Source: Candidatus Nitrospira kreftii
Lineage (GTDB): Bacteria > Nitrospirota > Nitrospiria > Nitrospirales > Nitrospiraceae
Length of the DNA: 64,000 nucleotides
Reading direction: 5' to 3'
Assembly (NCBI GenBank): GCA_014058405.1
Contig: CP047423.1
Coordinates: 620,001 to 684,000, forward strand
Both the position numbers and the translations under genes were made by a program. Under the pieces are notes generated by a model that had not been told where the DNA came from, searched no databases, and was given only the letters and a program-made list of their open reading frames with translations. Position 1 is the first letter of the stretch. The number at the start of each line of letters is the position of its first letter. Below are positions 123-14,726 of this stretch, piece by piece.

Positions 123-482
123 TCAACGCGCACGGGCGATCGTCATCAAGGCCGACTCGGAAAACCGTAACTCGCAGCAACCAAAATCTAGGGCTCGTCC
201 CTGGCCTTTTGCTAGAGCGCGTTGAATTTCTGGCGTCACTCTGTAACACACCTGTTTGCCGCACCGATGCCCTTCGACCAGGCCGGAATCTCGCAAAATG
301 CGGAGATGATGAGAGGCATGAGGCTGGGAGCAGCCGAGTTCTTGCACAAGATCCATCACGCATTTTTCACCGACGAGCAACGATTCTAGGATACGCAGTC
401 GAGTTTCATCGCCCAGCGCCTTGAGAACCAACGCGCATTGGCGCGGAGTGAGTACGTTGGCATTAAGAGCAGACCCCTTCAA
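123..482 (-). CDS. arsR: ArsR-family metalloid-responsive repressor
   Basis: Winged-helix repressor of 119 aa, expected to release DNA on binding As(III) or a similar thiophilic metalloid. The ArsR core runs from the helix around residues 20-36 (ALGDETRLRILESL) to the recognition helix SQPHASHHLRIL (52-63) and wing (67-82). Cys41 lies where classical ArsR has its first site cysteine, but the second cysteine of the CxC pair is absent. A C-terminal Cys102-Cys103 pair suggests a site like that of Acidithiobacillus ArsR; this is inference. The only plausible start is TTG at 482, preceded by GGAGG inside the end of the methyltransferase gene. Start and upstream stop overlap (TTGA), so the two genes should be translationally coupled. 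Confidence 0.88.
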   Translation of the reverse strand: MKGSALNANVLTPRQCALVLKALGDETRLRILESLLVGEKCVMDLVQELGCSQPHASHHLRILRDSGLVEGHRCGKQVCYRVTPEIQRALAKGQGRALDFGCCELRFSESALMTIARAR

Positions 483-1666
483 CAGCAGCCTCCGTCAGGG
501 GCACAGGTCACAGGCTCCCCGCTCACCCGTTCGCCGGCTCGATTTAAAATGGCGAAATGTGGCCGATACCCTTGAGCCTCCAGCACCGCCACCGTTTTTG
601 AGCAGATCTCCAGTGGTGCTCCTCGACGATAGAGGTGGTGATCATCGTCCTCAACTTCTAGAAATGGACCGGCCAGCGACGCATAATGGCCTTGCCATGT
701 GCAAGGAGCCTCCGCTGGTAAGACGGCGGTCCAGCGCGGATCGGTGTTGTCGAGTGGTACAGGCTCGGTAGTCAGGAGAAAGTGGTCGGTGATAGGAGGA
801 TAGCTCAACACGAGTACATCGTCAGTCGTGATGGGATGGGGGATACCACGGTGATAGGTCGTGCCCCGTTCATCGGTCACCCGACTGAAGGGGCCTCGAA
901 GCGTGGCGTATCGGAAGGGAGAGGCGGTCGCTGCAGAAGGCAGTTTATAACCGGTCAAGGTCACCGAAAAGAAATGGATGCCGTCGATGATGCGCCAGGG
1001 GGAAAATTTCGCCAGATGTAGGCCGAGAAAGCCGGCTGCAGTGATGCCGTTCATATAGTCGGAGAGGGTCAAGGCGCCGGACAAACAGTCTCCCCATTTC
1101 TCCGAATCGTGGACGAGATACTGGGGAACGGTTTGGTCAGAGACAATATCGGAGATGGTGAATCGCCCGCCGGGCTTGGCCACACGGTACATTTCGCGAA
1201 AGACCTTCCGCTTATCCGGAGCGAGATTGATGACGCAATTCGAGATGATCAGATCGATCGTGCCGTCCTCGACCGGCATGGCATCAGCCAAGCCTTTACG
1301 AAACTCGATATTTGACGCGAGATAGCCAAGATTTGTCGCGACAACCGGCGCGTTCTTTCGGGCGATTTCCAGCATCGCATCGGTCATATCGACGCCGATC
1401 ACATGTCCGGACGGGCCAACCAATCGCGCCGCTTCAAAACAATCAATACCGCCGCCCGATCCGATATCTAAAACGGTCTCGCCTGCCCGTACCGTCTTGA
1501 GCCCAGCCGGCGTGCCACAACCGTAGGAGATCTTGAGCACTTCTTCGGGGATGAAGGTCTGAAGGTGCCCCATGTCATAACTCGTGGGGCAACACATCTG
1601 TTCGCCGGTACTGGCGGCCTTGGCATAACGGTCGCTGACTTTTTTGGTGATTTCATCGATTGGCAT
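479..1666 (-). CDS. arsM: ArsM-type arsenite S-adenosylmethionine methyltransferase with duplicated C-terminal motif
   Basis: SAM-dependent methyltransferase of 395 aa that probably methylates trivalent arsenic. Motif I is VLDIGSGGGIDCF (65-77). Cys50 (YGCGTP), Cys144 (SNCVINL) and Cys194 (GDCLSG) have the spacing of the three As(III)-binding cysteines of characterised ArsM enzymes. A further Cys25-Cys26 lies near the N-terminus and the protein ends in Cys-Cys. Residues about 245-395 form an extra region with two copies of a Y-A-[TS]-L-x-G-P-F...RG motif. It is cotranscribed with the downstream ArsR gene, and a sigma70-type promoter lies 40-70 bases upstream. Alternative: a methyltransferase for another thiophilic metalloid. 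Confidence 0.85.
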   Translation of the reverse strand: MPIDEITKKVSDRYAKAASTGEQMCCPTSYDMGHLQTFIPEEVLKISYGCGTPAGLKTVRAGETVLDIGSGGGIDCFEAARLVGPSGHVIGVDMTDAMLEIARKNAPVVATNLGYLASNIEFRKGLADAMPVEDGTIDLIISNCVINLAPDKRKVFREMYRVAKPGGRFTISDIVSDQTVPQYLVHDSEKWGDCLSGALTLSDYMNGITAAGFLGLHLAKFSPWRIIDGIHFFSVTLTGYKLPSAATASPFRYATLRGPFSRVTDERGTTYHRGIPHPITTDDVLVLSYPPITDHFLLTTEPVPLDNTDPRWTAVLPAEAPCTWQGHYASLAGPFLEVEDDDHHLYRRGAPLEICSKTVAVLEAQGYRPHFAILNRAGERVSGEPVTCAPDGGCC

Positions 1667-1705
1667 AGCCGGCCTTCTTGTTCACGTAACCTATGGAGAT
1701 ACCTC

Positions 1706-1735
1706 TATGTATCAACACTCCCGAGTCGGGGTCAA
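1706..1735 (-). promoter_or_regulatory. Sigma70-type promoter of the arsM-arsR operon
   Basis: Read on the minus strand, TTGACC (1730-1735) and TACATA (1706-1711) are separated by 18 bases. The spacer contains the short dyad CCCGA-C-TCGGG, which could place a repressor between the -35 and -10 elements. The arsM start codon lies 40 bases downstream of the -10. Assigned from sequence only. Confidence 0.5.
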
Positions 1736-1775
1736 TCCCGTTCTTATTAGAGCGGTGGACAAACAATCTTCAATA

Positions 1776-1817
1776 TTACAGAAAGGAAACAACATGTTTC
1801 TGTAAGGTAGCTTACAG
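1776..1817. promoter_or_regulatory. Compound operator-like dyad (TTACAG/CTGTAA half-sites)
   Basis: Three half-sites form two overlapping palindromes. TTACAGAAA (1776-1784) is a perfect inverted repeat of TTTCTGTAA (1797-1805). CTGTAA (1800-1805) pairs with TTACAG (1812-1817) across a 6-base spacer. The second dyad recurs at 5416-5433 with an almost identical spacer. It lies about 130 bases upstream of arsM with no convincing gene on its right, so its target is not clear. ArsR is a candidate binder by proximity only. Confidence 0.5.
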
Positions 1818-2274
1818 TGACGAGATGCCCATTTAGTGTCATCGAAAGGCATAATGAGGAGTCGTTTGAAAAACGGGATTATTACAACAAGGCAGTTGAA
1901 AGAGAAGCTCTCCTCCTTTTTGAAGTCGGGTACGAGGAGCCTTTCTGCACGGCGATTGCTGCGGCACTCCTTTCAAAATGGCAGTGGGTGAATGACGACA
2001 CCGCTCCCGTCTCATGTGAGCGCGGATGAATCGGCATGCTAGCGCACGTCCGGTGAATCTATCCGTGATCTGGCTTACAAATCCGCCCAACCATTTTTCT
2101 TTGCCACTGGTGACGCCGTACTGCAATATTTGGTACCGCGGAAACAGAGATTCAGTGACCTTGCACCGGTTGTGGCATTGAGTGCGTAGTACGTGGTTCG
2201 ATAGAGAAAATCTTGTGTTGGCGGAGCGGAAACCGTCATACTGCTTGACGCCATGAATGAATGTGAGGCGGGAC

Positions 2275-3537
2275 ATGAGTCTTTTTGATAAAGACGTGCG
2301 TCCATCATCAACGGAGGATATGGGGCAGGAGGCTCGGATCGATCGGCGGACCTGGCTCACGGGTGCTGTTTCTTTGGTGGGGGCTACCGCCGCCGGCTTG
2401 CTCACTCCCGGCTTGATTCCAGCCGAAGAGGGGGAGAGCGTTCACCCCACCCACGTACCAGGCCGCAGACCCAGCCCATACGGAGTCCGCGCCCAAGGAG
2501 AAACGATTCAGCGCCTGCCCACGGCTACCCATTCACTGACGCCCCTTCACGCCCTGCACGGCATCATCACTCCGTCTGCACTGCATTTCGAGCGCCATCA
2601 TAACGGAGTGCCGAACATCAATCCCGACCGGCACCGACTCTTGATCCATGGTTTGGTCGACCGGCCACTGACATTTTCGATGAACGATCTCGTGCGCTTT
2701 CCATCCGTTACGCGAACCTTGTTCATCGAATGTTCCGGCAACTCCGGAAAAGAGTGGAAAGGGCCGACGGGAACAACCGTTCAAGAGACACACGGGTTGA
2801 TGAGCACGAGCGAATGGACCGGCGTACCGCTTGTGACCCTGTTGTCTGAAGCGGGCATGAACCCGACCGCATACTGGATTCTGGCTGAAGGCAGCGATGC
2901 CGCAGCGATGACGCGGAGCCTGCCGTTGGCGGAGGTGTTGAACGATGCGCTGCTCTGCTACGCGCAAAACGGTGAGGCGCTCAGGCCGGAGCAGGGATAT
3001 CCCCTCCGGCTCGTGATTCCAGGTTGGGAAGGCAATACTTGTATCAAGTGGATCAGACGATTGAAGCTTGGTACGGCGCCGTTCATGACTCGCGAAGAAA
3101 CCTCTCGCTATACCGACCTCATGCCGGACGGCACCGCTAAACAGTTTACGTTCGTGATGGAAGCCAAATCGGTGATCACAAGCCCGTCCGGTGGCCAACA
3201 GATCAAGCCGGGCTTCGTCGAGATTCGTGGATTGGCGTGGAGCGGGCGTGGAAAGATCGTCATGGCCGAGGTCAGCACGGACGGCGGGAAGTCCTGGCAC
3301 ACAGCTCAATTACAAGAGCCGGTGCTGTCGCAGTGTCACACGCGCTTTCGGTTCGGATGGCAGTGGAACGGAGATGAGACGATCATCCAAAGCCGCTGCA
3401 CAGATGAGACCGGCTCTGTTCAGCCGACCAGAGCGGCACTGGTCGCTGCACTAGGTGTCCATTCGTTTTACCATTACAATGCGATTCACAGTTGGAAAAT
3501 TGATCGACAAGGGAATGTGACCAATGCGCAGGTCTAG
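2275..3537 (+). CDS. Tat-exported sulfite dehydrogenase, molybdopterin subunit (SorA/SoxC type)
   Basis: Sulfite oxidase-family molybdoenzyme (420 aa) expected to oxidise sulfite to sulfate in the periplasm and pass electrons to the adjacent cytochrome c. A twin-arginine signal (DRRTWLTGA, then a hydrophobic stretch) lies at about residues 22-45. The Mo-ligating cysteine is in FIECSGNSGKEW. The dimerisation domain follows from about residue 285 and includes EIRGLAWSGRGKI. The ATG at 2275 is preferred over an in-frame ATG at 2257 because GAGGCGGG precedes it at correct spacing. It overlaps the cytochrome gene by 14 bases. SorA and SoxC cannot be told apart here; no other sox gene is nearby, which favours a stand-alone SorAB-like enzyme. 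Confidence 0.88.
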   Translation: MSLFDKDVRPSSTEDMGQEARIDRRTWLTGAVSLVGATAAGLLTPGLIPAEEGESVHPTHVPGRRPSPYGVRAQGETIQRLPTATHSLTPLHALHGIITPSALHFERHHNGVPNINPDRHRLLIHGLVDRPLTFSMNDLVRFPSVTRTLFIECSGNSGKEWKGPTGTTVQETHGLMSTSEWTGVPLVTLLSEAGMNPTAYWILAEGSDAAAMTRSLPLAEVLNDALLCYAQNGEALRPEQGYPLRLVIPGWEGNTCIKWIRRLKLGTAPFMTREETSRYTDLMPDGTAKQFTFVMEAKSVITSPSGGQQIKPGFVEIRGLAWSGRGKIVMAEVSTDGGKSWHTAQLQEPVLSQCHTRFRFGWQWNGDETIIQSRCTDETGSVQPTRAALVAALGVHSFYHYNAIHSWKIDRQGNVTNAQV

Positions 3538-4078
3538 ACCCGCAATGTCGATCATCCTGGCGCTGGGTCTGTTCCTGATGCCTATCGGGATTTCCACAGC
3601 GGAGGAAAGCCGCTACGGATTCGGGCAGCCGGCCACCGAGGCAGACATCAAGGCATGGAACATCGATGTTGCACCGAACGGAGTGGGGTTGCCACATGGT
3701 CGAGGAACAGTGCAGCAGGGGGCCAACCTTTACGCCACAAAGTGTGCCGCCTGCCATGGACCAACAGGAACGGAAGGGCCGAAAGATCGTTTGGTCGGCG
3801 GCCGGGGTTCGTTGGCCACGGAACACCCGATCAAGACCATCGGCAGTTACTGGCCCTATGCCACGACGTTGTACGACTACATCTTCCGCGCCATGCCATT
3901 CACCGCGCCGCAATCGCTCACGCCGGACGAAGTGTATAGCCTCGCCGCCTGGTTGCTGCACCAAAACAGTATCATTGAGAAGGATGCGGTGCTGGACGCC
4001 CGGACCCTTCCAACCATCCGGATGCCTAATCGCAATGGGTTCATTTCCGACTTGCGATCGGATGTGCCGATTCACTGA
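3524..4078 (+). CDS. Periplasmic c-type cytochrome, electron acceptor of the sulfite dehydrogenase
   Basis: Small monohaem cytochrome c (184 aa) with an N-terminal signal peptide ending near TAEES and one CAACH haem-binding site at about residues 79-83. Methionines in the C-terminal half (for example in FRAMPFTAP) could serve as the axial haem ligand. It is shorter than full SoxD, which has a second domain, and matches the N-terminal SoxD/SorB cytochrome arrangement. The reading frame starts inside the end of the dehydrogenase gene (14-base overlap), so the two are almost certainly coexpressed partners. Confidence 0.88.
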   Translation: MRRSRPAMSIILALGLFLMPIGISTAEESRYGFGQPATEADIKAWNIDVAPNGVGLPHGRGTVQQGANLYATKCAACHGPTGTEGPKDRLVGGRGSLATEHPIKTIGSYWPYATTLYDYIFRAMPFTAPQSLTPDEVYSLAAWLLHQNSIIEKDAVLDARTLPTIRMPNRNGFISDLRSDVPIH

Positions 4079-4111
4079 TGGGTGAGTCGGGCATGTCGGC
4101 TTTGCTTCCGA

Positions 4112-4879
4112 TCACTCCGACTTCTTCCTGAAGACGATATCTCCGTAGTAGGCTTCTGCCGATTCACCGGTATTGTCGGTATCCGTCATGATGGCGACAC
4201 CGGACATCATGGGCGGCTCTGCTCCAAATGCGCGTTTGTAGTCTTCGTAGACGTTGCGCTCTTCCGTCATCCAGGTGTTGACCTTCGTCGGCCCGCTTTC
4301 CACCACGATCATGTGCACCTGTTCGGTGTAGGGGTTGGGTACTGCCGTTCCCACCGGCGCCCGACTCTCCCAGATGTAATTCAGGGCGCCGAGGGGCGGA
4401 TAGCGCCCGTAGATGAGTTTGGCTGCTTCGTACTTCGCCTTGCCGAAGAGGCCCACTTTCGCACTGTCGTACTGAAAGGTGACGTAGATGCGGGCCGGAT
4501 AATCATCGCCGTCCTTCTTCGCCACATTGCCGGCTTTGAAGATGTTCGAGACTTTCCACTGCCATTGGATGATGGGATACTCCTTCGGATCGATCAAGGT
4601 TTCTTTCGTATAGCCTGAAGAGGAAGCCTGACTGACGGCCTTGACGACCACACGATCACCGTCTTTCACGAGATCGTAGGTCGTCTGTTGTGGAATTTTC
4701 GGAAATGTCAGCGGTTTCCAGCCGTCCGGCCAGGGTCCACCCGCAGCAGCGGTCGAAAAGGGACCAACCTCTATGGTGGCCGAGGATTGGGCTTGCAGCC
4801 GGTTCGGATCACCAAGGATCATTCCTACCAACATGCACGCTGCGAGACCGACGATCACAGAAGAAATAGATGGTGCCAT
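4112..4879 (-). CDS. Exported DUF3047 protein
   Basis: Protein of 255 aa with a signal peptide (hydrophobic from about residue 5 to 22, cleavage near LQAQS). The body matches DUF3047: an N-terminal beta-sandwich-like part, the segment IQWQWKVSN, and a C-terminal stretch ending YYGDIVFRKK. The family is usually periplasmic and its function is unknown. The start at 4879 is chosen because AAGGA precedes it at about 9 bases; an upstream in-frame ATG at 4915 has no ribosome-binding site. It converges on the cytochrome gene with a 33-base gap and no clear terminator. Confidence 0.8.
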   Translation of the reverse strand: MAPSISSVIVGLAACMLVGMILGDPNRLQAQSSATIEVGPFSTAAAGGPWPDGWKPLTFPKIPQQTTYDLVKDGDRVVVKAVSQASSSGYTKETLIDPKEYPIIQWQWKVSNIFKAGNVAKKDGDDYPARIYVTFQYDSAKVGLFGKAKYEAAKLIYGRYPPLGALNYIWESRAPVGTAVPNPYTEQVHMIVVESGPTKVNTWMTEERNVYEDYKRAFGAEPPMMSGVAIMTDTDNTGESAEAYYGDIVFRKKSE

Positions 4880-5148
4880 AGGCTGAATCCTTTTCAAGTT
4901 ATGACGATGAAACATCGTGGTTTATGATACCGGAAGAACTTCGGCGAGCAATTCGTGCTCCGTGACGTTTCGTACGGGGCTTACGACCTAGTATGCCTTT
5001 ACCAGCGTCGCATTCAACGTGTTCGCCAGGTTTATCTTGGCCGGACCCATGGCTTCTTCTCCGACCGGTGAAGCGAATCCCTGAGTCAACACTTGTGAGT
5101 GTCTGACAAGGCGAGATCCGGCCTCTCCTAACGCCGGGGAATACCATC

Positions 5149-5385
5149 TCAACCTGGTTGGAGCAAGCACCAACGCTTCACCCAGTGCCGGGTTCTCTCG
5201 AAAACGGTCGGGACACCGTTGATAGCGATCGCTGGTAAAGCCTTAAAGCCCATCGCCTTCACGTCATCATCCTGTACTGCCACGGTCCATCTGGGATAGG
5301 CTGCCTCAACATCCTTCGCAAGTTGCAAGATCGATGGTTCTGATAAGCACCCATCGTGGAAGTAGAAATCCACTCGCTTCATGCG
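5149..5385 (-). CDS. Small thioredoxin/glutaredoxin-like protein
   Basis: Protein of about 78 aa with a thioredoxin-fold look: beta strand VDFYFHDGC, a single active-site-position cysteine followed by Leu-Ser-Glu (no CxxC), then a cis-proline loop FKALPAIAINGVPTV. Related small proteins often sit beside metal or thiol stress genes; that link is inferred. A TTG start at 5409 is possible in the same frame. The C-terminus (after VPTVFE) is odd: the neighbouring reading frame continues as NPALGEALVLA, which would fit the family too, so a frameshift near 5195 is possible. A promoter and a perfect dyad operator lie immediately upstream. Confidence 0.55.
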   Translation of the reverse strand, partial: RMKRVDFYFHDGCLSEPSILQLAKDVEAAYPRWTVAVQDDDVKAMGFKALPAIAINGVPTVFERTRHWVKRWCLLQPG

Positions 5386-5415
5386 AGAAGCATAGGCCAG
5401 TCGGTTCAAGGGAAT

Positions 5416-5433
5416 CTGTAAGCTACGTTACAG
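5416..5433. promoter_or_regulatory. Dyad operator CTGTAA-N6-TTACAG
   Basis: Perfect 6-base inverted repeat with a 6-base spacer, placed at the predicted transcription start of the thioredoxin-like gene, where a bound repressor would block transcription. The same dyad occurs at 1800-1817 beside the arsenic operon, with spacer GGTAGC there and GCTACG here. Confidence 0.6.
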
Positions 5434-5465: not shown

Positions 5466-5674
5466 CCGCAAGGGACAGGAATCTGAAACGTGTTTGAAGC
5501 AGCAGCTTCCTCCATCCACCAGATGTCGATTTGGCAGTGTGGGTCTGCTCTTGAATGGGAAGGACTGGGGTGGCGGAGTCCGAACTTGGTGAGCTTGGTA
5601 TAGTCTATCCGCTCTTCCTGCCGCGCAAACACAGAGTGCCTGCTTTTACCGCAGCTGCTATACGACCTCACGCC

Positions 5675-5935
5675 TCATTGGAGAGGGGGGAGTTGAATAA
5701 CCCTCCCGTCCTTGAGGGATTGCACCAGGGCAAGGTCGAAGAACAGTTTACGTAGATTGGATTGCAGGTCAGCAAACGAGTTTCCTTCCGCCCAGAAGTC
5801 GGGGTGCGTTCGTAGACAGCCGAGCCACCGCTCCTCATCCTCCAAGAAGTGGTAGGTCACTTCTTGTATGGAAAACTCATCCGAACGACCCATCGTCGGA
5901 AAATCGTGCCGGTTTATGTGGCGCTGTAATGTCAT
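5675..5935 (-). CDS. HicB-like antitoxin-type protein
   Basis: About 86 aa. The segment from FLEDEERWLGCLRTHP through FADLQSNLRKLFFDLA follows the HicB N-terminal beta-beta-beta-alpha pattern (a sheet with W-x-G-x-L, an E-G-x-[ST] turn, then a helix rich in L and K). HicB antitoxins normally neutralise the HicA mRNA interferase. No intact hicA is adjacent. An ATG overlaps this gene's stop as ATGA, as in a coupled toxin gene, but that frame stops after six codons (MRREVV). The start is uncertain: GTG at 5950 and ATGs at 5935 and 5893 are possible, none with a good ribosome-binding site. Confidence 0.5.
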   Translation of the reverse strand: MTLQRHINRHDFPTMGRSDEFSIQEVTYHFLEDEERWLGCLRTHPDFWAEGNSFADLQSNLRKLFFDLALVQSLKDGRVIQLPPLQ

Positions 5936-6042
5936 ACTAAATTCGAACACACGATTGTCTTGTGGTCAAGGAACATGGGAAGCCAATACCATGGCCGATT
6001 CATGGTGGTGGCAACAAGTCGAGAACTGAAGGGTGGATGTAC

Positions 6043-6342
6043 TCAGCGATTGCTGATCATCGCGAAGAGGACCTGTTCGACTCGGGCTCGTCGCTTGATA
6101 TACGCAGCCGATACAGGACGAGACATCGTGGGGGTGAGACTGTGATGTCGATCGTGCTCTCCGGTCTGGCATTGGTCCTGCTCAGATTCTTGTGTTTGGC
6201 TCGAGAGTTCTTGGTGCAGTTGCCACAGTTTAACTTGGAGTTCTTCGAACGACTCCCCTTGGACTTCATACTCCGGGTAGCCCTCCAAGTAGCCACGCCA
6301 TCCGTTGTCGTCTTGCCAGAGGATGTATTTAGAGGAGCGCAT
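6043..6342 (-). CDS. HicB-like protein, possibly decayed at its C-terminus
   Basis: About 99 aa. Residues 1-45 (MRSSKYILWQDDNGW, then GYLEGYPEYEVQGESF and a helix) match the same HicB-like pattern as the gene at 5675-5935. After about residue 50 the protein becomes Gln/Ser/His-rich and no longer resembles the family, suggesting frameshift decay. No toxin partner is seen. No ribosome-binding site precedes the ATG at 6342. It may be an orphan or a pseudogene. Confidence 0.42.
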   Translation of the reverse strand: MRSSKYILWQDDNGWRGYLEGYPEYEVQGESFEELQVKLWQLHQELSSQTQESEQDQCQTGEHDRHHSLTPTMSRPVSAAYIKRRARVEQVLFAMISNR

Positions 6343-6945
6343 CAAGGAAAGTATAGCTGGAGTTTTATGAGGCGCAAGTGAAGAGGGAAAATGAACAGTA
6401 GGGGACGTCGATACGCGAGAAGATTTAATAAATCCCATTGGTTAAGCCATCAGCATATCTGTCAAAGCCATTCCGTTCGGCTCGAAAGAGTAGGATGAGT
6501 CAGGATCCGCAAAGTATTGGTAAACCGCTCGACGGAAGAATTAACCACCACTCATCAGGCTTCCATGGTTTCCGGCGCAGTGGTTGGACCTAACTACGAT
6601 GTTCCGTGATTCAGTTCACTGTACTTGCAAGAACACGGAGCATTTCCGGCTTGCTGTTTTTATCCTAACGCAGCAGGTGAATCTCACATGGCAGATCGAT
6701 GGATGGCTGCGCTGAGTCCATTTCTTGATGGCTTCCAAAAGAACCCGCTGCCTCCCCACTGATTGATGCGCGCAGAATTCGCAAGGAAGCTTATTTAGAA
6801 GGTCTTCAGGCTAATCGCTCGAAAATTGACGCGGTCACATTAGCGCAAAACAGTCGACAAGAACGATTTTGATCGCTACATTTCCCGAGAGACCTTCAAA
6901 ACTTTTCGATGTGCTACTTCAAGCCGTATAGGGAGGAGGCAAACG
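6343..6945. other. Intergenic region with possible gene debris
   Basis: About 600 bases without an intact gene. On the plus strand an open frame from 6729 to 6872 reads WLPKEPAASPLIDARR and onward but lacks any start codon, so it could be the tail of a broken gene. The last bases before 6946 carry the strong ribosome-binding site of the next gene. Nothing else recognisable. Confidence 0.4.
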
Positions 6946-7470
6946 ATGATGACGACCCACACGTCTACGGATGAACAGTTGAAGGACCAGGCGATTCGGC
7001 AAGCTTTGGCGGGCGACATTGCTGGAGCACGAGAAACGGTCAGCGGAGTGGCCGATCGGCGGTATCTCAGAGATGCCTGGCAAATGATGCTCTTTATCGA
7101 ATCTGAGCGAGGAAACGTGGAGTCTGTCAGGGATACGATTGTCTCCTGCCCGGATCCGTCCCTCTTGGCGAGTCACTTCTACCTTGAGCTTCCTCAAGTC
7201 TTTGTCAAGGCTGGAGATCGATCCGGGGCCATCGAGATCGCCAAGGCGATGGGCGATGCCGGCATCTTACCGCTTATCGGAATCGCCGCCCATCTCGCGC
7301 AGGACGGAGATGCTGCCGGGGTGCGAGAGGCGCTCTCTCATATCGATGATGAAGATTTGAGAACGATGATTCTGCGAAAGGTGAATGCCTATCAGCCAAA
7401 GAGCGAGCGACTCACCGTACGGGACCGGAGGGCGGACCAGGCTGCTCCATCCGGTTCGTTGGCAGCATAA
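6946..7470 (+). CDS. Helical-repeat protein of unknown function
   Basis: Protein of 174 aa, predicted all-alpha and cytoplasmic (no signal or membrane segment). It contains TPR-like helical pairs, for example ALAGDIAGARETVSGV and FVKAGDRSGAIEIAKAM, about 34-36 residues apart or multiples of that, typical of a protein-binding scaffold. GGAGG lies 7-8 bases before the ATG at 6946, so the start is secure. It stands alone, with decayed sequence on the left and recQ on the right. Function not recognised. Confidence 0.7.
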   Translation: MMTTHTSTDEQLKDQAIRQALAGDIAGARETVSGVADRRYLRDAWQMMLFIESERGNVESVRDTIVSCPDPSLLASHFYLELPQVFVKAGDRSGAIEIAKAMGDAGILPLIGIAAHLAQDGDAAGVREALSHIDDEDLRTMILRKVNAYQPKSERLTVRDRRADQAAPSGSLAA

Positions 7471-7601
7471 CCACTGTTGCAACGTAGCCCTCCGGTTCCA
7501 ATCGCTACTGCTATCTGCCTGCTTACGACGTCGCCCGAGGGCGTGACAACCTGTCAATCGACGTCGATGGCTTGAGCATCAATCGTGCACGTTCCGGTCG
7601 C

Positions 7602-7631
7602 TCGACTTGTTCGCAGGCAGTCGTCTATACT
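7602..7631 (+). promoter_or_regulatory. Candidate recQ promoter
   Basis: TCGACT (7602-7607) and TATACT (7626-7631) are separated by 18 bases. The element lies inside the N-terminal extension of the longest open frame, which argues that recQ starts further downstream, at GTG 7682. Confidence 0.35.
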
Positions 7632-7681
7632 TCGTTCACGTTCACCAGTACGACCACTCCATCATTCTGATTTACCTCCCC

Positions 7682-9544
7682 GTGGATTCTCTGACTCGAC
7701 AGCTCAAAGAACGATTCGGGTTTGCGACGTTTCGCCCCGGCCAAGAGGACGTTATTCACGCCGTGTTGGCGGGACGCGATGCCATGGCGGTCATGCCGAC
7801 AGGGCAGGGGAAATCGCTCTGCTATCAATTGCCGGCGACTCTGTTACCCGGACTCACGCTGGTGATTTCTCCGCTTATCGCCCTGATGCAGGACCAAGTG
7901 TCGGCCATGAAGCAGCGGAAAATTGCGGCGGCGGCATTTCATTCCGGTCTCACTGGGCTGGAAAAGAACCGGGTGATGCAGGATCTCCATCACCGGCGAG
8001 TTCAACTTCTCTATCTGGCGCCGGAGCGGATGCAACACGATGGATTTCTGCAGCTTTTGCGTTCTCTCTGGGTATCGCTGCTGGTTGTGGACGAAGCGCA
8101 CTGTATTTCCCAGTGGGGGCATGATTTCAGGCCGGATTTTCTCAAGATCGGCCGCTTGCGCCAGGAACTTACGAATCCACCTTGCCTGGCGCTGACGGCC
8201 ACGGCCACCGCTCGTGTGCAAACGGATCTGTGCCAGCGGCTATCACTTCGCGATCCCTTTCGACTCGTCGCTGGGTTTCGTCGGGCCAACCTCGCTCTCT
8301 CCGTTCATCTCTCTCAGTCTCGCCAGGATAAGCTGTCGACGCTGGGACGCTTGGTTCGTGAGACGCAGAAGGGGACAATCCTCGTCTATTGTGCTACTCG
8401 CCGAGCCGTGGAGGAGGTGGCTGCATGGTTGGGACAGGCTTACCCCTCGGTCGGCTATTACCATGCCGGTCTTTCAGATGAAGAACGACGGATAGTCCAC
8501 GAGGAATTTCGCCGAGGAACGGTGCGAATTCTGGCCGCGACCAATGCCTTCGGCATGGGCATCGATAAGGCGGACGTTCGTTTGGTCGTCCATTTTGACA
8601 TCCCAGGAAGTCTAGAGGCCTATTATCAGGAGGTGGGGCGTGCCGGTCGCGATGGACGGCTTGCGGCGTGCGCGTTGCTGTTCCATGAACGCGATGTGGC
8701 CACGCAGGAATACTTTATTGAGCAGGCATCAAAAGATCCTGAGGGCACCGATCGCGCGGAGCGAATGAAGACGCTTCTTCAAGAAATGTTGGGGTATGTC
8801 TCAACGTCGACCTGTCGGCAGCTCGCGATTCTTGAGTATTTCAGCGATGACGCCGAACGGGCGTTGGGCCCTTGCGGGTTGTGTGATCGCTGTGTCACGC
8901 CGGTCAGACAGGCGACCCGGGCGGCCTCTCAGGAGACCACCGTTTCCGCGCGAGATGTGCTGGAAACGGTCTCCTGGTGTATGGGGCGCTTCGGCTTGAA
9001 TCGAGTTGTTGATATCCTTCGTGGAAGCCGCTCAAAAGCGCTGCTGGCCTGCGGTGCGGAGGAGTGCCCGACCTACGGAATCTGTCGTACACAGTCGAAA
9101 CCGTCTGTCATTGCGGGAGTGAAGGTCCTTATCGACTCAGGGTATCTTCGGGTTGAAGGCTCTGAGTATCCCACGCTTGATGTGACGAGCAAAGGACGAG
9201 AGGTTCTGCAAGGGCTTTGCTCCGTAGCCATGGGACAAGCGGCGGACTATCTGTCCAGTGCGTCGGTGATGAAACCCCGTCACTCATCAACTGTCCTGGC
9301 TGGTGTCCCTGCGGCTATGCCGCCTGATCGACAACTTGTTGAAAGACTCAGACAACTTCGCTCGCAATTGGCCGAGGAAGAGGGCGTGGCGCCCTTCCTC
9401 ATTTTCCATGACAAAACGTTGAAGGCGATCGCCGGGTACAAACCAGGGACGACGGCGGCTCTGTTAGAGATTCCCGGGATCGGCGAGATGAAAGCTGAAC
9501 GATACGGACGGCGGGTGTTGGCTGTGGTCAATGATGATCAATAA
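7682..9544 (+). CDS. recQ: ATP-dependent DNA helicase RecQ
   Basis: Superfamily 2 3'-to-5' helicase (about 620 aa) acting in recombination and restart of stalled forks. Visible motifs: FATFRPGQ (motif 0), MPTGQGKSLCYQ (Walker A), VVDEAHCISQWGHDFRPDF (DEAH box and RecQ-specific loop), LTATAT, and TNAFGMGIDKADVR with YYQEVGRAGRDG (motifs V-VI). A zinc-binding RQC segment ends in CGLCDRC, followed by a winged-helix part and a C-terminal HRDC domain (from about 575, with helix-hairpin-like IPGIGEMKAERYG). A TTG at 7607 would extend the frame, but the added residues are not RecQ-like and overlap a candidate promoter, so GTG 7682 is chosen. Neighbours suggest a single-gene unit. Confidence 0.95.
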   Translation: MDSLTRQLKERFGFATFRPGQEDVIHAVLAGRDAMAVMPTGQGKSLCYQLPATLLPGLTLVISPLIALMQDQVSAMKQRKIAAAAFHSGLTGLEKNRVMQDLHHRRVQLLYLAPERMQHDGFLQLLRSLWVSLLVVDEAHCISQWGHDFRPDFLKIGRLRQELTNPPCLALTATATARVQTDLCQRLSLRDPFRLVAGFRRANLALSVHLSQSRQDKLSTLGRLVRETQKGTILVYCATRRAVEEVAAWLGQAYPSVGYYHAGLSDEERRIVHEEFRRGTVRILAATNAFGMGIDKADVRLVVHFDIPGSLEAYYQEVGRAGRDGRLAACALLFHERDVATQEYFIEQASKDPEGTDRAERMKTLLQEMLGYVSTSTCRQLAILEYFSDDAERALGPCGLCDRCVTPVRQATRAASQETTVSARDVLETVSWCMGRFGLNRVVDILRGSRSKALLACGAEECPTYGICRTQSKPSVIAGVKVLIDSGYLRVEGSEYPTLDVTSKGREVLQGLCSVAMGQAADYLSSASVMKPRHSSTVLAGVPAAMPPDRQLVERLRQLRSQLAEEEGVAPFLIFHDKTLKAIAGYKPGTTAALLEIPGIGEMKAERYGRRVLAVVNDDQ

Positions 9545-9746
9545 CCATCAGTGCGACTGGTAGTCGGCGGTCGACGCTCAGCTCGCAATTTGAGAATCCA
9601 TGAGGAAGAACAGGTAGGAGGGCGTCGCGGTCTGCCGGATTCAAACGGAGCTCGATTCGTGGGCGATACCCCGTTGCGCGTTCGGTACGACTGGACGAAC
9701 GGGGAGCTAACCGCTATGAGACGAGGAAGGAGTAGGGCACACCCCG

Positions 9747-9968
9747 CTATGCTGCTTGAGCTGGTCGAGCGAGCGGTTGCGCCGTACGCGACATGCGCCT
9801 TCCGGTTCTCCGAACTTCGTGCATCATCCGATTATATTGGATCAAGGGGTCTTCGATATTGCCGCATGCCACACATCGCAGGCCGCTCATCCACATCGGC
9901 ACATAGCTTTCTTGCATGTCCAGCAAATGATCCCTGACCATTAATCCACTGCAGCGCGCGCATTTCAT
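9747..9968 (-). CDS. Small zinc-ribbon protein
   Basis: Protein of 73 aa with two CxxC knuckles (MKCARC at the start, LRCVACGN around residues 31-37), forming a zinc ribbon, then a basic tail with MSRTAQPL. Similar one-domain zinc-ribbon proteins are common in Nitrospira-type genomes, function unknown; nucleic-acid or protein binding is a guess. AGGAGGG precedes the ATG at ideal spacing, so the gene is probably real despite its size. It converges with recQ. A perfect 7-bp palindrome (CGAGCAG-CT-CTGCTCG, 9993-10008) lies just upstream. Confidence 0.72.
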   Translation of the reverse strand: MKCARCSGLMVRDHLLDMQESYVPMWMSGLRCVACGNIEDPLIQYNRMMHEVRRTGRRMSRTAQPLARPAQAA

Positions 9969-10345
9969 GGGAGTCCCTCCTTGGTATTCAGTCGAGCAGC
10001 TCTGCTCGTCCTCATGATTTACCGGTTTCTATACGCAATGATGATGCCAAGGATGACGCTGGTCCGTTACCGCCGAAGATGCTTGAGCGGTGCGGCGTAG
10101 GTGGCTTCCTGAGGTCCGATCTCTGGCTACCGCCGCATGGATTCAGTGCCGAACGTATCGAGAGTGATACGCCCGATGAGACAAAACGATACAGGTCTAG
10201 AAATAGAGACCCAACCTTGCATGGCAGGGAATGAAAGGGTCTGGAACATGTCATTGACGGAATCGCTTAAGGCCCCGATAATGCGCCGAATCGTGGTACG
10301 GAGGGTAACATCCATTGCGAACTTCGGGAACGTAACTGACCATCG
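9969..10345. other. Intergenic region
   Basis: 377 bases between the divergent zinc-ribbon and DUF2868 genes. It holds a perfect palindrome at 9993-10008 and otherwise only short open frames without family signatures. No RNA gene was recognised. Confidence 0.4.
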
Positions 10346-11845
10346 ATGACACTTGCTCAACTTGCCAAGGTGCTGCTGGTTCAGGCCTGCGAAGAACATG
10401 ATTCTGACCACAAGTTTATTTTGCGATATGAACGGGAATGGCCTCGTCATGGAAGGTCCGATCTTAAAGGTGACACGGCCACGGAAGATCCTGCCCGCGC
10501 TGGGGAGGCTTCGGTCTACGATCGGGCTGAGCACATCTCCGATCGACTGATTCAGAAACATCCTGCGCTCACTTCGGCTTTCGCCGTCCTGCGAATCAAG
10601 ACGCCGATCACGCCGCTCATCGGCTGTGCTTTGGTAGGGGGCTTCCTCGCCGATCCCATAGGCCCTGCGGGCCAGATTAACCTCCTGAATTTTCCCCTCC
10701 TCACGCTCCTGCTTTGGAATGGGGTCGCCTACCTCGGGTTGCTCTACAACATGATCGTACCTCGACCGTCACGAGATCGGCCCCAGCCAGGCCTGTCGGG
10801 ACTGGTGGAATGGCTCTTGGAACTCAGCGTGAAGGGACGGCTCAGCCGACTTCGGTCTGATCGCGCACAGAGTTCCGACGAACAGCGATGGATTGCAGCG
10901 TCCCTTGCGACGTACGCCGCACGCCTGCTCCACAGCGGCCGTGAATTGTTGATCACCCATGCCCGCAGCCTGCTCCACGTGGCAGCGGCAGCGCTGGCGA
11001 TCGGCGTGATCGCGGGGCTCTACCTGCGTGGTTTCAGTTTTCTGTACAAGGCGGGATGGGACAGCACGTTCATGGACGCTGAGGGAGTCTACGCCTTTCT
11101 CTCCATTCTCTTCGCGCCGGCGAGTTGGTTTTTGGGGACTCCGGTGCCCGGCGTAGAAGCCATCGCTGACCTGCAAGGCACAGCCAGGGCCAATGCGGCG
11201 ATCTGGATTCATTTCTGGGCGATGACGACGCTACTATTCATTGTTCTGCCGAGAACCCTGCTGGCTGCGGCTGCCTGGAAGCGTAAGTCTCGTCTGGCCG
11301 CCGATATACAGCTGCCGAGCAACGAGCCGTATTTCCGACGCCTCCTGAATCCCTATCGAGGAAAAGGCCTGATTGTGGAGGTGTTTGCCTATAGTCATCG
11401 CGTAAAGGAGGCCGACGATCGGCTTCTGGCATTCCTCAGCAACGCCTTCGGCGTTCTGGCGGATATCCACATGGGGAGCTCAGTCCAGTACGGCGAACCC
11501 CCTCCACACTTTCCGACAGATTCCGATCGAGGTCTCTGTGCTGTGGTCCTGTTCAACGTGGCCCAGGCTCCCGAGGAAACACACAGCGAATTTTTGGAGG
11601 AGCTGAAAACCACGATCCGAGGCAGAGGCCGGCCGAACATGCTGCTGGTCCTATTGGATTGCGAAGGCTATTCACAGATCAACCATGAGAAGAGGGTGAG
11701 GGAACGGTGCCAGGCCTGGACTATGCTGGCGAAAGAGTGCGGACTCCAGGCGCTGAAATACCGAGACCCTTCCGGACCACCGGATGGGGAACTGCAGGCC
11801 TTGCCCGATTGTTTGTGGCCCGGTGATTATCGAGGAACACAATGA
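10346..11845 (+). CDS. DUF2868 membrane protein
   Basis: Integral membrane protein (499 aa) matching DUF2868. Hydrophobic segments lie near residues 90-110, 112-135, 210-235 and 290-315. A soluble C-terminal part (from about 330) has a Rossmann-like start (GLIVEVFAYSHR) and a segment LLVLLDCEGYSQ. The family is found with a DUF3482 GTPase, as here: the next gene starts within its last codon (ATGA overlap at 11842-11845). The pair probably forms a membrane-associated GTPase complex of unknown role. No strong ribosome-binding site was seen before the chosen ATG. Confidence 0.82.
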   Translation: MTLAQLAKVLLVQACEEHDSDHKFILRYEREWPRHGRSDLKGDTATEDPARAGEASVYDRAEHISDRLIQKHPALTSAFAVLRIKTPITPLIGCALVGGFLADPIGPAGQINLLNFPLLTLLLWNGVAYLGLLYNMIVPRPSRDRPQPGLSGLVEWLLELSVKGRLSRLRSDRAQSSDEQRWIAASLATYAARLLHSGRELLITHARSLLHVAAAALAIGVIAGLYLRGFSFLYKAGWDSTFMDAEGVYAFLSILFAPASWFLGTPVPGVEAIADLQGTARANAAIWIHFWAMTTLLFIVLPRTLLAAAAWKRKSRLAADIQLPSNEPYFRRLLNPYRGKGLIVEVFAYSHRVKEADDRLLAFLSNAFGVLADIHMGSSVQYGEPPPHFPTDSDRGLCAVVLFNVAQAPEETHSEFLEELKTTIRGRGRPNMLLVLLDCEGYSQINHEKRVRERCQAWTMLAKECGLQALKYRDPSGPPDGELQALPDCLWPGDYRGTQ

Positions 11846-13314
11846 GTGTCGAAAAATCGCAGATTGCTCTCTCCTTGATTTCTCATACGAATATCGGGAA
11901 GACCACTCTCGCTAGAACGTTGCTCCGAAAGGATATCGGTCTCGTCGCCGATCGAGCCCATGTCACGCTCGAGAATCAAAAGTACACCGTGCTGGAAACG
12001 GAGGCAGGGGAGTCTTTGCAGCTGTGGGATACGCCCGGCTTTCCCAACTGTCAAAAGATCCTCTCGCGGTTACAGGGGGCCAAGAATCCGATCGTCCGGA
12101 TAGTGACCGAGGTGTGGGATCGCCTTCGTGATCGGCCGTCCTGGTGTGCCCAACAGGCGGTGTTGAATGTCCAGCAAGAGGCGGACGTCGTACTCTATCT
12201 CGTGAATGCAACCGAAGAACCGAGCATGGCCGGGTATATCGCGCCGGAAATGCAATTACTCGAATGGATCGGCAAACCCGTCATCGTCCTGCTGAATCAA
12301 ACCGGCCCTCCCAAAGACCGCCAAGATCAGGAACGCCTGGAGCAACCTTGGAAGGACTACTTTGCTCGGTATGGCTTCGTCAGGGGTGTGCACAGTCTCG
12401 ATGCGTTCAGCCGTTGCTGGGTCCAGGAAGGCATTCTGTTTGAGACCATTCAATCGGTGCTCCCTTCGGACGACCGTCAACGTATGACACGATTGTTTGC
12501 CGTGTGGGAGAAAGCGAATCTGACCGTATTCCACTCGGCGATGGAGCAATGGGCCGTGCTCGTGTCGCGTGCCGCGAAATCTCGAGTGATGACCAAGGGG
12601 GATGGCTCGTCGATGGAGGTGCAGAAACAACAGGCGGTCGATCGTCTCTTGAAGGACTTGGTAAACGAGGTTGGGGCGACGACCAAAGCGGTCATTGCTC
12701 TACATGGCTTAGATGGAGATGCGATTGGCGCGATCCAGGCCAGAATGGAACACGTCGAAGTACAACGAGGCGGGCAGAGCTGGGGCGAAGCGACTCTTAG
12801 CGGGACGGCTATCGGGGGGATCGGTGGAGCCTTGACCAGTGGGGCCTATGCCGGGCTTCATCTGGATGCGGCGACGGGTGGGGTCAGCATGGGTCTGTTC
12901 ACAGTTGCTGGGGCTGTGGTGGGAGGCGCCCTCGGCTTTCTCGGAGGAGAAGCCTGGGCGGAACGGCAGGCAGGCCACCAGCAGACTCCAGTTATGTGGT
13001 CGGATGACTATCTGAATCTGTTGGTCCAAGATGTGATCATCCGGTATCTGGCTATCGCCCACTTCGGCCGAGGCCAGGGGCAGTATGTGGCGGATCCCGA
13101 AGACCCCAGGTTCTGGATCGACAAGGTGAAAACTCTGGTTTCGAGACAGCATATCTCCTTGCACGAGCAATGGGCATGTTTGCGGGAGCAAGACCTCATG
13201 CCCCGAACAGATGAGAAACCCAAACAACTCATGGCGTTGTTGACATCCATCACGCTCGAACTACTCTGGAACACATATCCAGCTTCCAAACGATTTCTGA
13301 ACCGCCAGACATGA
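11842..13314 (+). CDS. GTPase with DUF3482 domain
   Basis: TRAFAC-type GTPase (490 aa). The P-loop region is SHTNIGKTTLART (14-26), in which the first glycine of GxxxxGKT is histidine-shifted. The G3 motif is WDTPGF and the G4-like motif LLNQTG replaces NKxD. From about residue 225 the DUF3482 part follows, including a glycine/alanine-rich hairpin of two hydrophobic segments (about 310-375), probably membrane-inserting, as in glycine-zipper proteins. Translationally coupled to the DUF2868 gene. Substrate and pathway are unknown for the family. Confidence 0.85.
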   Translation: MSVEKSQIALSLISHTNIGKTTLARTLLRKDIGLVADRAHVTLENQKYTVLETEAGESLQLWDTPGFPNCQKILSRLQGAKNPIVRIVTEVWDRLRDRPSWCAQQAVLNVQQEADVVLYLVNATEEPSMAGYIAPEMQLLEWIGKPVIVLLNQTGPPKDRQDQERLEQPWKDYFARYGFVRGVHSLDAFSRCWVQEGILFETIQSVLPSDDRQRMTRLFAVWEKANLTVFHSAMEQWAVLVSRAAKSRVMTKGDGSSMEVQKQQAVDRLLKDLVNEVGATTKAVIALHGLDGDAIGAIQARMEHVEVQRGGQSWGEATLSGTAIGGIGGALTSGAYAGLHLDAATGGVSMGLFTVAGAVVGGALGFLGGEAWAERQAGHQQTPVMWSDDYLNLLVQDVIIRYLAIAHFGRGQGQYVADPEDPRFWIDKVKTLVSRQHISLHEQWACLREQDLMPRTDEKPKQLMALLTSITLELLWNTYPASKRFLNRQT

Positions 13315-13386
13315 GACGACGGTCCGCTTATCTGACGCTCGCCCTCGGTTGACAGGCATCTGACTCACACACGAGAATCAATTTTT

Positions 13387-14631
13387 ATGTCATCGAAAGA
13401 GATCCAGATGGTTGGCCAATCAGCCGCAGCGGAGCAACAAGATCACGATGAACCGACCTTCCCCCGCTATACAGGGCCGGCATTCTTGTCGTACGGATTC
13501 CGACCATTCTTCCTCGGTGCATCATTGTTTACCGGTTTGGCCATCCTTGCCTGGGTTGCCTTGTTTGTAGGCAGGGTGTCAGTGGACTTTCTCTATCCTC
13601 CACGCGAGTGGCATGTCCATGAGATGTTGTTTGGGTATTTGCCTGCCTTGATAGCAGGATTTTTATTGACCGCCATGCCTAATTGGACGGACCGGATGCC
13701 GCTGAGAGGGGCGCCATTGCTGGCAATGTTTCTACTGTGGGTAGCAGGACGACTGCTCGTGGCGGTGCCTTTGGCCGGAGCCTCCGTTGCCGCGGTTGTC
13801 GATGGAGCGTTTTTGGTTTTCCTGGCCACCTATGTCTGGCGAGAAATTATGGCGGCAGGGAGCTGGGATCGAGCGCCGATTGGAATTCTGGTGAGTCTCT
13901 ATGCGGTCACAAACATTCTGTTTCATCTGTCAGCACTACGAGGTATGCCCACAGACCTTCCCGAGCGGCTTGCCTTGTCAGTGATGACACTGATGTTGAC
14001 GATCATCGGCGGGCGTCTCACGCCGACGTTTACCCGAGAGTTTCTGGCTGAACGGAACGAGACCAGTTTGCCAGAAGTCTTTACTCGGGTGGATGGCGCC
14101 CTGATCGTTTTCGTACTCATAGGCGTTCTCACATGGATTGTTCAGCCGGAGACGGTGTGGGCTGGAGTCATGTTGATTGTGGCTGGGGTGGCGAGTCTGG
14201 CGCGTCTGCTGCGTTGGGGAGGGTGGAGAACCTGGCGTGAGCCGTTAGTGCTGATCTTGCACATCGGTTACGGATGGGTAGGATTGTTTTTGGTAGCCCT
14301 CGGTGCGTCGATTCTTGGAGTCGGGTATACACCTGAAAATGCAGTTCATCTCCTGACCACCGGAGCGATGGGTACGATGACGCTGGCGGTGATGACGCGA
14401 GCGAGCCTGGGTCACACCGGACGACCTCGGCATGCCGATCGGCTGACCGTGATGATCTATCTACTGGTTAACCTTGGGGCGTTATTGAGGATCTTCATTC
14501 CGAATACCGAGATCCCTTCTACGCTTACTCATGCGATGCTCGGTCTCTCCGCAATTAGCTGGGGCGGAGCGTACCTGTTGTTTGCATTCGTCTATGGCCC
14601 GTTTCTCTTCCGTCCGAGCCTGGATGAGTAG
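13387..14631 (+). CDS. nnrS: NnrS family haem-copper membrane protein
   Basis: Polytopic membrane protein (414 aa) with about 12 hydrophobic segments. NnrS signatures: LSYGFRPFFLGASLF near the N-terminus, REWHVHEMLFGYLPALIAGF with conserved histidines, TAMPNWTD, GGRLTPTFTREF, and HLLTTGAMGTMTLAVMTRASLGHTG near the C-terminus. NnrS proteins relieve nitric-oxide stress (protection from metabolic iron blockage) and are usual in denitrifiers and nitrite oxidisers. Start chosen at the ATG after an AT-rich leader. No clear FNR/NnrR box was found upstream. Single-gene unit. Confidence 0.92.
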   Translation: MSSKEIQMVGQSAAAEQQDHDEPTFPRYTGPAFLSYGFRPFFLGASLFTGLAILAWVALFVGRVSVDFLYPPREWHVHEMLFGYLPALIAGFLLTAMPNWTDRMPLRGAPLLAMFLLWVAGRLLVAVPLAGASVAAVVDGAFLVFLATYVWREIMAAGSWDRAPIGILVSLYAVTNILFHLSALRGMPTDLPERLALSVMTLMLTIIGGRLTPTFTREFLAERNETSLPEVFTRVDGALIVFVLIGVLTWIVQPETVWAGVMLIVAGVASLARLLRWGGWRTWREPLVLILHIGYGWVGLFLVALGASILGVGYTPENAVHLLTTGAMGTMTLAVMTRASLGHTGRPRHADRLTVMIYLLVNLGALLRIFIPNTEIPSTLTHAMLGLSAISWGGAYLLFAFVYGPFLFRPSLDE

Positions 14632-14726
14632 AGGGAGGGAGAAACGATTGGCGCCCTATTGATCTGTGCGGTATGATGCGTATCTAAGAAGAAGTTGGCT
14701 CAATTATTCTTAACAACCTGAACAAA

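What the first reader, a model, noticed from the sequence alone, without database searches (positions are those of the whole stretch)
1776..5433. The same 18-bp dyad beside the arsenic operon and at the thioredoxin-like gene
CTGTAA-N6-TTACAG occurs at 1800-1817 and 5416-5433 with spacers GGTAGC and GCTACG. The second copy sits exactly at a predicted transcription start; the first overlaps a larger inverted repeat. Two perfect copies within 4 kb suggest one repressor controlling both, perhaps the ArsR encoded here.
Basis: partly seen in the sequence, partly recalled or inferred. Interest (0 to 1): 0.52.

Follow-up and report, generated by a model that had tools for sequence, protein, structure and literature searches.

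The report
Orphaned CRP-type activator sites
Two identical-looking DNA switches beside an arsenic gene and a thioredoxin-fold gene are real control sites shared with related nitrifying bacteria, but the switch protein they most likely belong to is a CRP-type activator whose gene has been deleted from this genome, not the neighbouring arsenic repressor.

Summary
In detail: CTGTAA-N6-TTACAG lies at 1800-1817 and 5416-5433, and these are the only two exact copies in the 4.13 Mb genome. In 79 genomes of the genus the dyad is a conserved promoter element, YTGTRA-N6-TYACAG. It sits at -50 to -52 before the thioredoxin-fold gene in 21 of 21 homologous loci, 128-156 bp before arsM in 14 of 70, and before a VTT/FAD-oxidoreductase operon. 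A TA dinucleotide (-10-like) follows 20-21 bp downstream in 47 of 47 distinct promoters, which puts the dyad at about -41.5, the position of a class II CRP-type activator site. In relatives the sites cluster around a CRP/FNR-family gene (15 of 16 genomes with it have sites, 7 of 63 without). The window aligns with that island but carries two deletions. The larger one, between window 4928 and 4974, removed the regulator gene. So both sites are probably orphaned here. ArsR is not the likely reader: 13 of 19 arsM loci with adjacent arsR lack the dyad, and arsM has its own conserved proximal promoter. Binding, transcription start and signal are untested.

The parts
1800..1817 (-). Dyad 1, CRP-type site upstream of arsM (CTGTAAGCTACCTTACAG in gene direction)
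   Evidence: orthologous site before arsM in 14 of 70 upstream regions, own included
1773..1778 (-). -10-like TAATAT, 21 bp downstream of dyad 1 (predicted start about 1766)
   Evidence: spacing read; conserved TA at 20-21 bp in all 16 distinct arsM promoters; start is inferred
1776..1805 (.).
   Evidence: not seen by eye in relatives' sequences
1698..1735 (-). Proximal arsM promoter TTGAC...TTGATACATA with small dyad GATAC-N6-GTATC, candidate ArsR operator
   Evidence: TTGATACATA with at most 1 mismatch in 60 of 70 arsM upstream regions; coordinates; ArsR binding not tested
479..1666 (-). arsM, arsenite methyltransferase, 395 aa
   Evidence: methyltransferase domains; best NCBIfam hit arsenite methyltransferase PRK11873, 233.3 bits, below its 263-bit cut-off
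123..482 (-). arsR, ArsR/SmtB-family regulator
   Evidence: PF01022, NF033788 above cut-off
5416..5433 (-). Dyad 2, CRP-type site upstream of thioredoxin-fold gene (CTGTAACGTAGCTTACAG in gene direction)
   Evidence: site at -50 to -52 in 21 of 21 homologous loci
5389..5394 (-). -10-like TATGCT, 21 bp downstream of dyad 2; predicted start at the ATG (leaderless)
   Evidence: start is inferred
5199..5382 (-). Thioredoxin-fold gene, native part; the C-terminal helix is missing (frame runs on to a stop at 5149 through foreign sequence)
   Evidence: alignment, junction, fold of an intact relative
5183..5198 (.). Junction of deletion 1 (about 2.1 kb of the relatives' island missing)
4974..5182 (-). 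Remnant of a 328-aa gene of the relatives' island
   Evidence: 68-70% DNA identity to L131 and L135
4929..4973 (.). Junction of deletion 2 (about 7.2 kb missing in comparison with L131), which removed the CRP/FNR-family gene, its own site, and the VTT and FAD-oxidoreductase genes
4112..4915 (-). DUF3047 gene, last gene of the operon whose first genes are deleted
   Evidence: PF11249; 82-89% DNA identity in relatives
2257..3537 (+). SoxC-type sulfite dehydrogenase gene, same neighbour in relatives' islands
   Evidence: TIGR04555 562.7 bits, cut-off 420; L135, L149
3524..4078 (+). c-type cytochrome gene, same neighbour in relatives' islands
   Evidence: PF13442 and PF00034

Best explanation
Each dyad is a binding site for a homodimeric CRP/FNR-family activator (motif YTGTRA-N6-TYACAG) placed about 41.5 bp upstream of transcription start. 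There the bound dimer would overlap the -35 region and recruit RNA polymerase, as at class II CRP promoters. In relatives the activator gene lies inside the same gene island. The activator would turn on arsM (from a distal promoter, in addition to the conserved proximal promoter that ArsR probably controls), the thioredoxin-fold gene (leaderless), and a VTT / FAD-oxidoreductase / DUF3047 operon (leaderless). In this genome two deletions removed the activator gene and the C-terminus of the thioredoxin-fold gene, so both dyads are most likely leftovers without their regulator. Shown: site conservation, spacing, clustering with the CRP gene, the deletion. Inferred: binding, activation, transcription starts, loss of function here. 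Unknown: the signal.
For: Conserved site at a fixed place in 21 of 21 thioredoxin-fold loci, some only 29-35% identical in protein. 14 of 70 arsM upstream regions. 66 genus-wide hits (65 physical sites, one palindrome being listed on both strands) against 2 for the reversed pattern. TA at 20 or 21 bp after the dyad in 47 of 47 distinct promoters of three gene classes. A CRP/FNR-family gene among the sites, PF00027 and PF13545 above cut-off, helix GCSRETVS. Genomes with the ortholog: 15 of 16 have sites; without: 7 of 63. For arsM, which can lie about 20 kb away: 11 of 15 against 5 of 57. In loci carrying a CRP at least 75% identical to P0001: 65 sites against 0 control, with a site within 500 bp upstream of the CRP gene in 21 of 32 loci; 1 site in 8 loci at 50-63% and 1 in 40 at 45% or less. 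Collinear deletion in the window. Best match to the regulator in this genome is 28% identical; its single HTH_Crp_2 protein has helix GTTRSRVSFF.
Against: No binding or expression data. The -10-like elements are only partly consensus (window arsM TAATAT). The association tests treat related genomes as independent, and sites beside the CRP gene are co-inherited with it. Both arms are intact at both window sites, which could mean a very recent loss or continued use. 4 of 15 CRP-bearing genomes with arsM have no dyad within 160 bp of an arsM copy. 5 genomes without an intact ortholog have it before arsM: this one, G041 and G051, plus G008 (ortholog fragment at a contig edge) and G017 (broken ortholog).
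Confidence: 0.77

Rival explanations
1. The dyads are still in use: another protein of this genome, for example its one remaining CRP/FNR-family protein, reads them.
For: All 24 arm bases of the two window sites are intact, and each has a -10-like element at the conserved spacing. One CRP-family protein remains.
Against: Its recognition helix differs (GTTRSRVSFF against GCSRETVSST). Genomes lacking the dedicated regulator mostly have no site at all (56 of 63), so no other protein keeps the motif. The thioredoxin-fold gene downstream of dyad 2 is truncated.
Confidence: 0.15
2. One reading: the dyad is the operator of the ArsR encoded here, which represses both genes.
For: Dyad 1 is upstream of arsM-arsR, and ArsR-family proteins bind dyads (family knowledge, recalled).
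Against: 13 of 19 loci with adjacent arsR have no dyad, and 1 of 7 dyad loci has no arsR found in its locus. The dyad also precedes genes away from arsR. It lies upstream of the conserved proximal arsM promoter, which has its own small dyad.
Confidence: 0.04
3. A CRP/FNR-family protein binds the site, but as a repressor or dual regulator.
For: Site and regulator evidence are the same; CRP-family proteins can repress (recalled).
Against: The fixed centre near -41.5 in three promoter classes, with no clear -35 element, is the activator arrangement. A repressor would not need one fixed spacing.
Confidence: 0.1
4. The dyads are ends or scars of a small mobile element or chance repeats.
For: The two copies, read by their spacers, are in opposite orientation and flank 3.6 kb.
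Against: Each is conserved separately at the same place relative to its gene in genomes where the two lie tens of kb apart. The matches do not extend beyond the site.
Confidence: 0.01

Closest known systems
Escherichia coli / Vibrio CRP class II promoters (TGTGA-N6-TCACA centred at -41.5; passages seen in PMC10328515)
   Same: Same inverted repeat with 6-bp spacer (some sites here read exactly TGTGA-N6-TCACA); same distance to the -10 element; regulator with cNMP-binding domain and RET recognition helix
   Different: Many sites have A for G (TGTAA); the regulator scores far below the CRP equivalog cut-off (105.5 against 266 bits); narrow local regulon; ligand unknown
NtcA (cyanobacterial nitrogen regulator; GTA-N8-TAC recalled)
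   Same: Site TGTAA-N6-TTACA also fits GTA-N8-TAC; same family fold
   Different: 90.3 bits against the 244.95 cut-off; target genes are arsenic/redox genes
Mycobacterial CRP/FNR-family regulator, PDB 3d0s/3i54 (organism recalled)
   Same: Closest solved sequences (E 3e-39)
   Different: Other phylum; regulon not compared
NnrR-type CRP/FNR protein predicted in a Nitrospira genome (passages seen in PMC8510549)
   Same: Same superfamily in the same genus
   Different: Predicted to respond to nitrogen oxides; the word arsenic does not occur in that text; not compared by sequence with this regulator
ArsR/SmtB repressors
   Same: An ArsR-family gene sits downstream of arsM here
   Different: The dyad does not track arsR

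Membership tests
CRP/FNR-family regulator (P0001, relatives' protein) | Cyclic-nucleotide-binding-like sensor domain plus Crp-type helix-turn-helix | tested here: met
   PF00027 78.1 bits (cut-off 27.5), PF13545 70.9 (27), PF00325 39.8 (21)
CRP proper (cAMP receptor, NF008732) | Score above curated equivalog cut-off | tested here: not met
   105.5 bits against 266
NtcA (TIGR03697) | Score above curated equivalog cut-off | tested here: not met
   90.3 bits against 244.95
CRP-type class II activator promoter | Inverted repeat TGTRA-N6-TYACA | tested here: met
CRP-type class II activator promoter | Site centred about 41.5 bp upstream of the start | tested here: inconclusive
   TA at 20-21 bp after the dyad in 47 of 47 distinct promoters implies -41.5/-42.5; starts not mapped
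CRP-type class II activator promoter | Regulator binds the site and activates | not testable with these tools
   needs gel shift and transcription assays
CRP-type class II activator promoter | Cognate regulator present in this genome | tested here: not met
   best match 28% identical; gene lies in the interval deleted from the window
ArsR operator | Dyad accompanies arsR-bearing arsM operons | tested here: not met
   13 of 19 loci with adjacent arsR lack it
ArsR operator | ArsR binds the dyad | not testable with these tools
   needs a binding assay

The most novel reading that the evidence does not exclude
An undescribed CRP/FNR-family regulon of Nitrospira places arsenite methylation, a VTT/FAD-oxidoreductase/DUF3047 operon and a single-cysteine thioredoxin-fold protein under one dedicated activator, with leaderless class II promoters and a non-ArsR signal (for example thiol or redox stress). 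The activator has been lost more than once (this genome, G017, possibly G051), leaving orphan operators and handing arsM back to its proximal promoter alone.
Probability: 0.5. Interest if true: 0.6.

Novelty: new member of a known kind. Interest (0 to 1): 0.45.

Why it matters
It gives a testable second layer of control over arsenic methylation in an environmentally important nitrifier genus, names the regulator gene to test, and predicts start sites to the base. It also shows a regulon caught in decay, with operators outliving their regulator. The practical lesson is that a conserved operator in a genome need not mean that its regulator is still encoded there. I found no paper describing this regulon in the seven listings that were answered on this question, but most subscription journals are not in that library.

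Tried and rejected
ArsR as reader of the dyad: rejected on distribution. Terminal inverted repeats of a mobile element: rejected because each site is conserved separately and on its own gene's side. MerR-family regulator divergent from arsM in several relatives (L009, L132): considered because MerR sites are dyads, but MerR sites lie between -35 and -10 (recalled) whereas this dyad is centred about 29.5 bp upstream of the first -10-like base. Genome-wide excess of the dyad in this genome: none (7 places with at most 1 mismatch against 17 for the reversed pattern). The paralogous FAD oxidoreductase of this genome at 1.98 Mb (80% identical) was checked for a site; none with 2 or fewer mismatches in the stretch scanned.

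Limits. 70 arsM upstream regions were analysed of the matches listed; other copies and fragments were not fetched, and 2 of the 70 have under 150 bp upstream (36 and 133 bp), so they could not show the site. Of 66 places, 61 were put into the promoter analysis; the other 5 had no locus in my coordinate list. Of those 61, 50 fell into the three gene classes and 11 into none. Counts for the arsM table were typed by hand. Fisher values ignore kinship of genomes. The motif used was written after looking; the TTGATACATA test was likewise written after looking at the sequences.
Full report
WHAT WAS CHECKED. The window is 620001-684000 of a single-contig 4,125,728-bp genome. Its named relatives are Nitrospira species; G002 shares size and coordinates with Nitrospira moscoviensis NSP M-1. 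The dyad CTGTAA-N6-TTACAG is exact at 1800-1817 and 5416-5433, and these are the only exact copies in the genome. With one mismatch allowed there are 7 places, fewer than the 17 of the reversed pattern, so the genome has no wider excess. About 0.16 exact copies are expected by composition. In 60 simulated windows two perfect dyads with the same arm within 4 kb never occurred, and anywhere in 64 kb they occurred 3 times. So the window alone gave a good hint but no proof.

CONSERVATION. For the gene behind dyad 2, 21 homologous loci in 15 of 79 genus genomes were found. All 21 have the site at -50 to -52 from the ATG, although some of the proteins are only 29-35% identical; the next best match in each region is clearly worse. 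For arsM, 70 upstream regions were read and 14 (own included) carry the site, 128-156 bp before the start. The refined pattern YTGTRANNYNSCTYACAGA gives 66 hits in 22 of 79 genomes, one palindrome being listed on both strands, against 2 hits of the reversed pattern. Of 61 hits placed, 17 precede arsM, 16 the thioredoxin-fold gene and 17 a VTT-domain / FAD-oxidoreductase operon; 11 fall in none of these classes.

GEOMETRY. In all 47 distinct promoter sequences of the three classes a TA dinucleotide begins 20 or 21 bp after the dyad: arsM 13 and 3 of 16, thioredoxin-fold 6 and 9 of 15, VTT 16 and 0 of 16. Other distances from 10 to 33 bp have at most 6 of 16, and the arsM class accounts for those higher counts. 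If this is the -10 element, the dyad centre is at -41.5 or -42.5. That is where CRP (TGTGA-N6-TCACA) sits at class II promoters; I saw the relevant passages of PMC10328515. For the thioredoxin-fold and VTT genes the predicted start falls on the ATG, so these messages would be leaderless. In the window the elements are TAATAT (1773-1778) and TATGCT (5389-5394).

THE REGULATOR. In relatives' islands, between the thioredoxin-fold gene and the VTT operon, lies a 234-residue protein (P0001) with a cyclic-nucleotide-binding domain and a Crp-type helix-turn-helix, both above Pfam cut-offs. It is below the curated cut-offs for CRP and NtcA, and its nearest solved relatives are CRP/FNR-family proteins such as 3d0s, mycobacterial as I recall. 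Of the 16 genomes with an ortholog 15 have sites; of the 63 without 7 do. The exception, G007, has the gene cut off at a contig end. Because neighbouring sites are co-inherited with the gene, I also looked at arsM alone, which in G004 lies about 21 kb from the regulator: 11 of 15 genomes with the ortholog and 5 of 57 without. In 80 loci around relatives of the regulator, sites are frequent only with the close orthologs: 65 sites against 0 control in 32 loci at 75% identity or more, 1 in 8 loci at 50-63%, 1 in 40 loci at 45% or less. These loci overlap in part with the genomes of the earlier searches.

THE DELETION. The window aligns with the intact islands of G004 (L131) and G009 (L135) in three collinear pieces. 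Window 5436-5199 is the site and thioredoxin-fold gene, 5182-4974 is a piece of a 328-residue gene, and 4928-4124 is the DUF3047 gene. In L131 the missing intervals are 5604-7711 and 7930-15082. The second holds the regulator gene (11639-12343), the site at 12529-12546, and the VTT and FAD-oxidoreductase genes. Islands of G006, G064 and G076 agree in two pieces. The regulator has no other close copy in the genome: the best match is 28% identical, and the only HTH_Crp_2 protein has a different recognition helix. The window's thioredoxin-fold protein lacks the C-terminal helix of its relatives. The predicted structure of an intact relative (pLDDT 90) matches thioredoxins and SelW-like proteins, so 'thioredoxin-like' is right as a fold; the family keeps one invariant cysteine in a CxS motif. 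Two other genomes show similar decay: G017 keeps only fragments of the regulator beside a thioredoxin-fold gene with an internal stop, and G051 keeps the arsM site but has no ortholog and only a fragment of the FAD oxidoreductase in the stretch read.

WHY NOT ArsR. Among 30 arsM loci with flanks, arsR is adjacent in 19, and 13 of these have no dyad; of 7 with the dyad, one has no arsR in the locus. arsM has a second promoter nearer the gene, TTGAC...TTGATACATA, present with at most one mismatch in 60 of 70 upstream regions (shuffled mean 0.26, maximum 3). In the window it contains GATAC-N6-GTATC (1698-1713), a better candidate for ArsR. That ArsR binds there is inference.

WHAT IS SHOWN AND WHAT IS NOT. 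Shown by sequence: the site, its conservation, its spacing, its association with a CRP/FNR-family gene, and the loss of that gene here. Inferred: binding, activation, start sites, and that the two window sites are now without function. Against the orphan reading stands that all arm bases of both sites are intact, which would fit a recent loss or a substitute regulator. The signal is unknown; the targets suggest metalloid or redox stress, and that is a guess.

LITERATURE. Listings seen. Passages seen: PMC8510549 (CRP/FNR proteins in a reactor community including a Nitrospira; no occurrence of arsenic) and PMC10328515. PMC12342949 was searched for arsenic, arsenite, arsM and Crp without a hit. 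None of these describes this regulon.

Noticed in passing
window 1698-1735 (-): A second, proximal arsM promoter (TTGAC...TTGATACATA) is conserved in 60 of 70 arsM upstream regions of the genus, with a small dyad that may be the ArsR operator.
   Followed up: partly
G000:C1:2815437-2815616 (L181): The 4.13 Mb genome has a single HTH_Crp_2 protein, whereas G002 (Nitrospira moscoviensis) shows 7 CRP-like matches at E 1e-10 or better.
   Followed up: partly
G000:C1:1981820-1983397 (L273, L277): A paralogous VTT / FAD-oxidoreductase pair (80% identical to the island's oxidoreductase) sits elsewhere in this genome without the dyad.
   Followed up: partly
L267 9899-10500 (G017): Fragments of the regulator gene end at a thioredoxin-fold gene with an internal stop: a parallel decay of the same island.
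   Followed up: partly
window 2257-4915: SoxC-type sulfite dehydrogenase and cytochrome c genes next to DUF3047 are conserved as neighbours in relatives' islands (L135, L149), possibly linking the island to sulfur or thiol chemistry.
   Followed up: no
window 479-1666 (-): ArsM is near-universal in the genus (72 of 79 genomes) and is 395 aa long with a Cys-Cys C-terminus; it scores below the named ArsM cut-offs.
   Followed up: no
window 5675-5950 and 6043-6438 (-): Two short ORFs with similar W-G-L/Y-E motifs resemble HicB-type antitoxins (recalled, not tested).
   Followed up: no
G072 contigs C7, C14, C31, C50, C69, C70: One binned genome carries several regulator copies and 11 sites, so the island seems duplicated or the bin mixed.
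   Followed up: no
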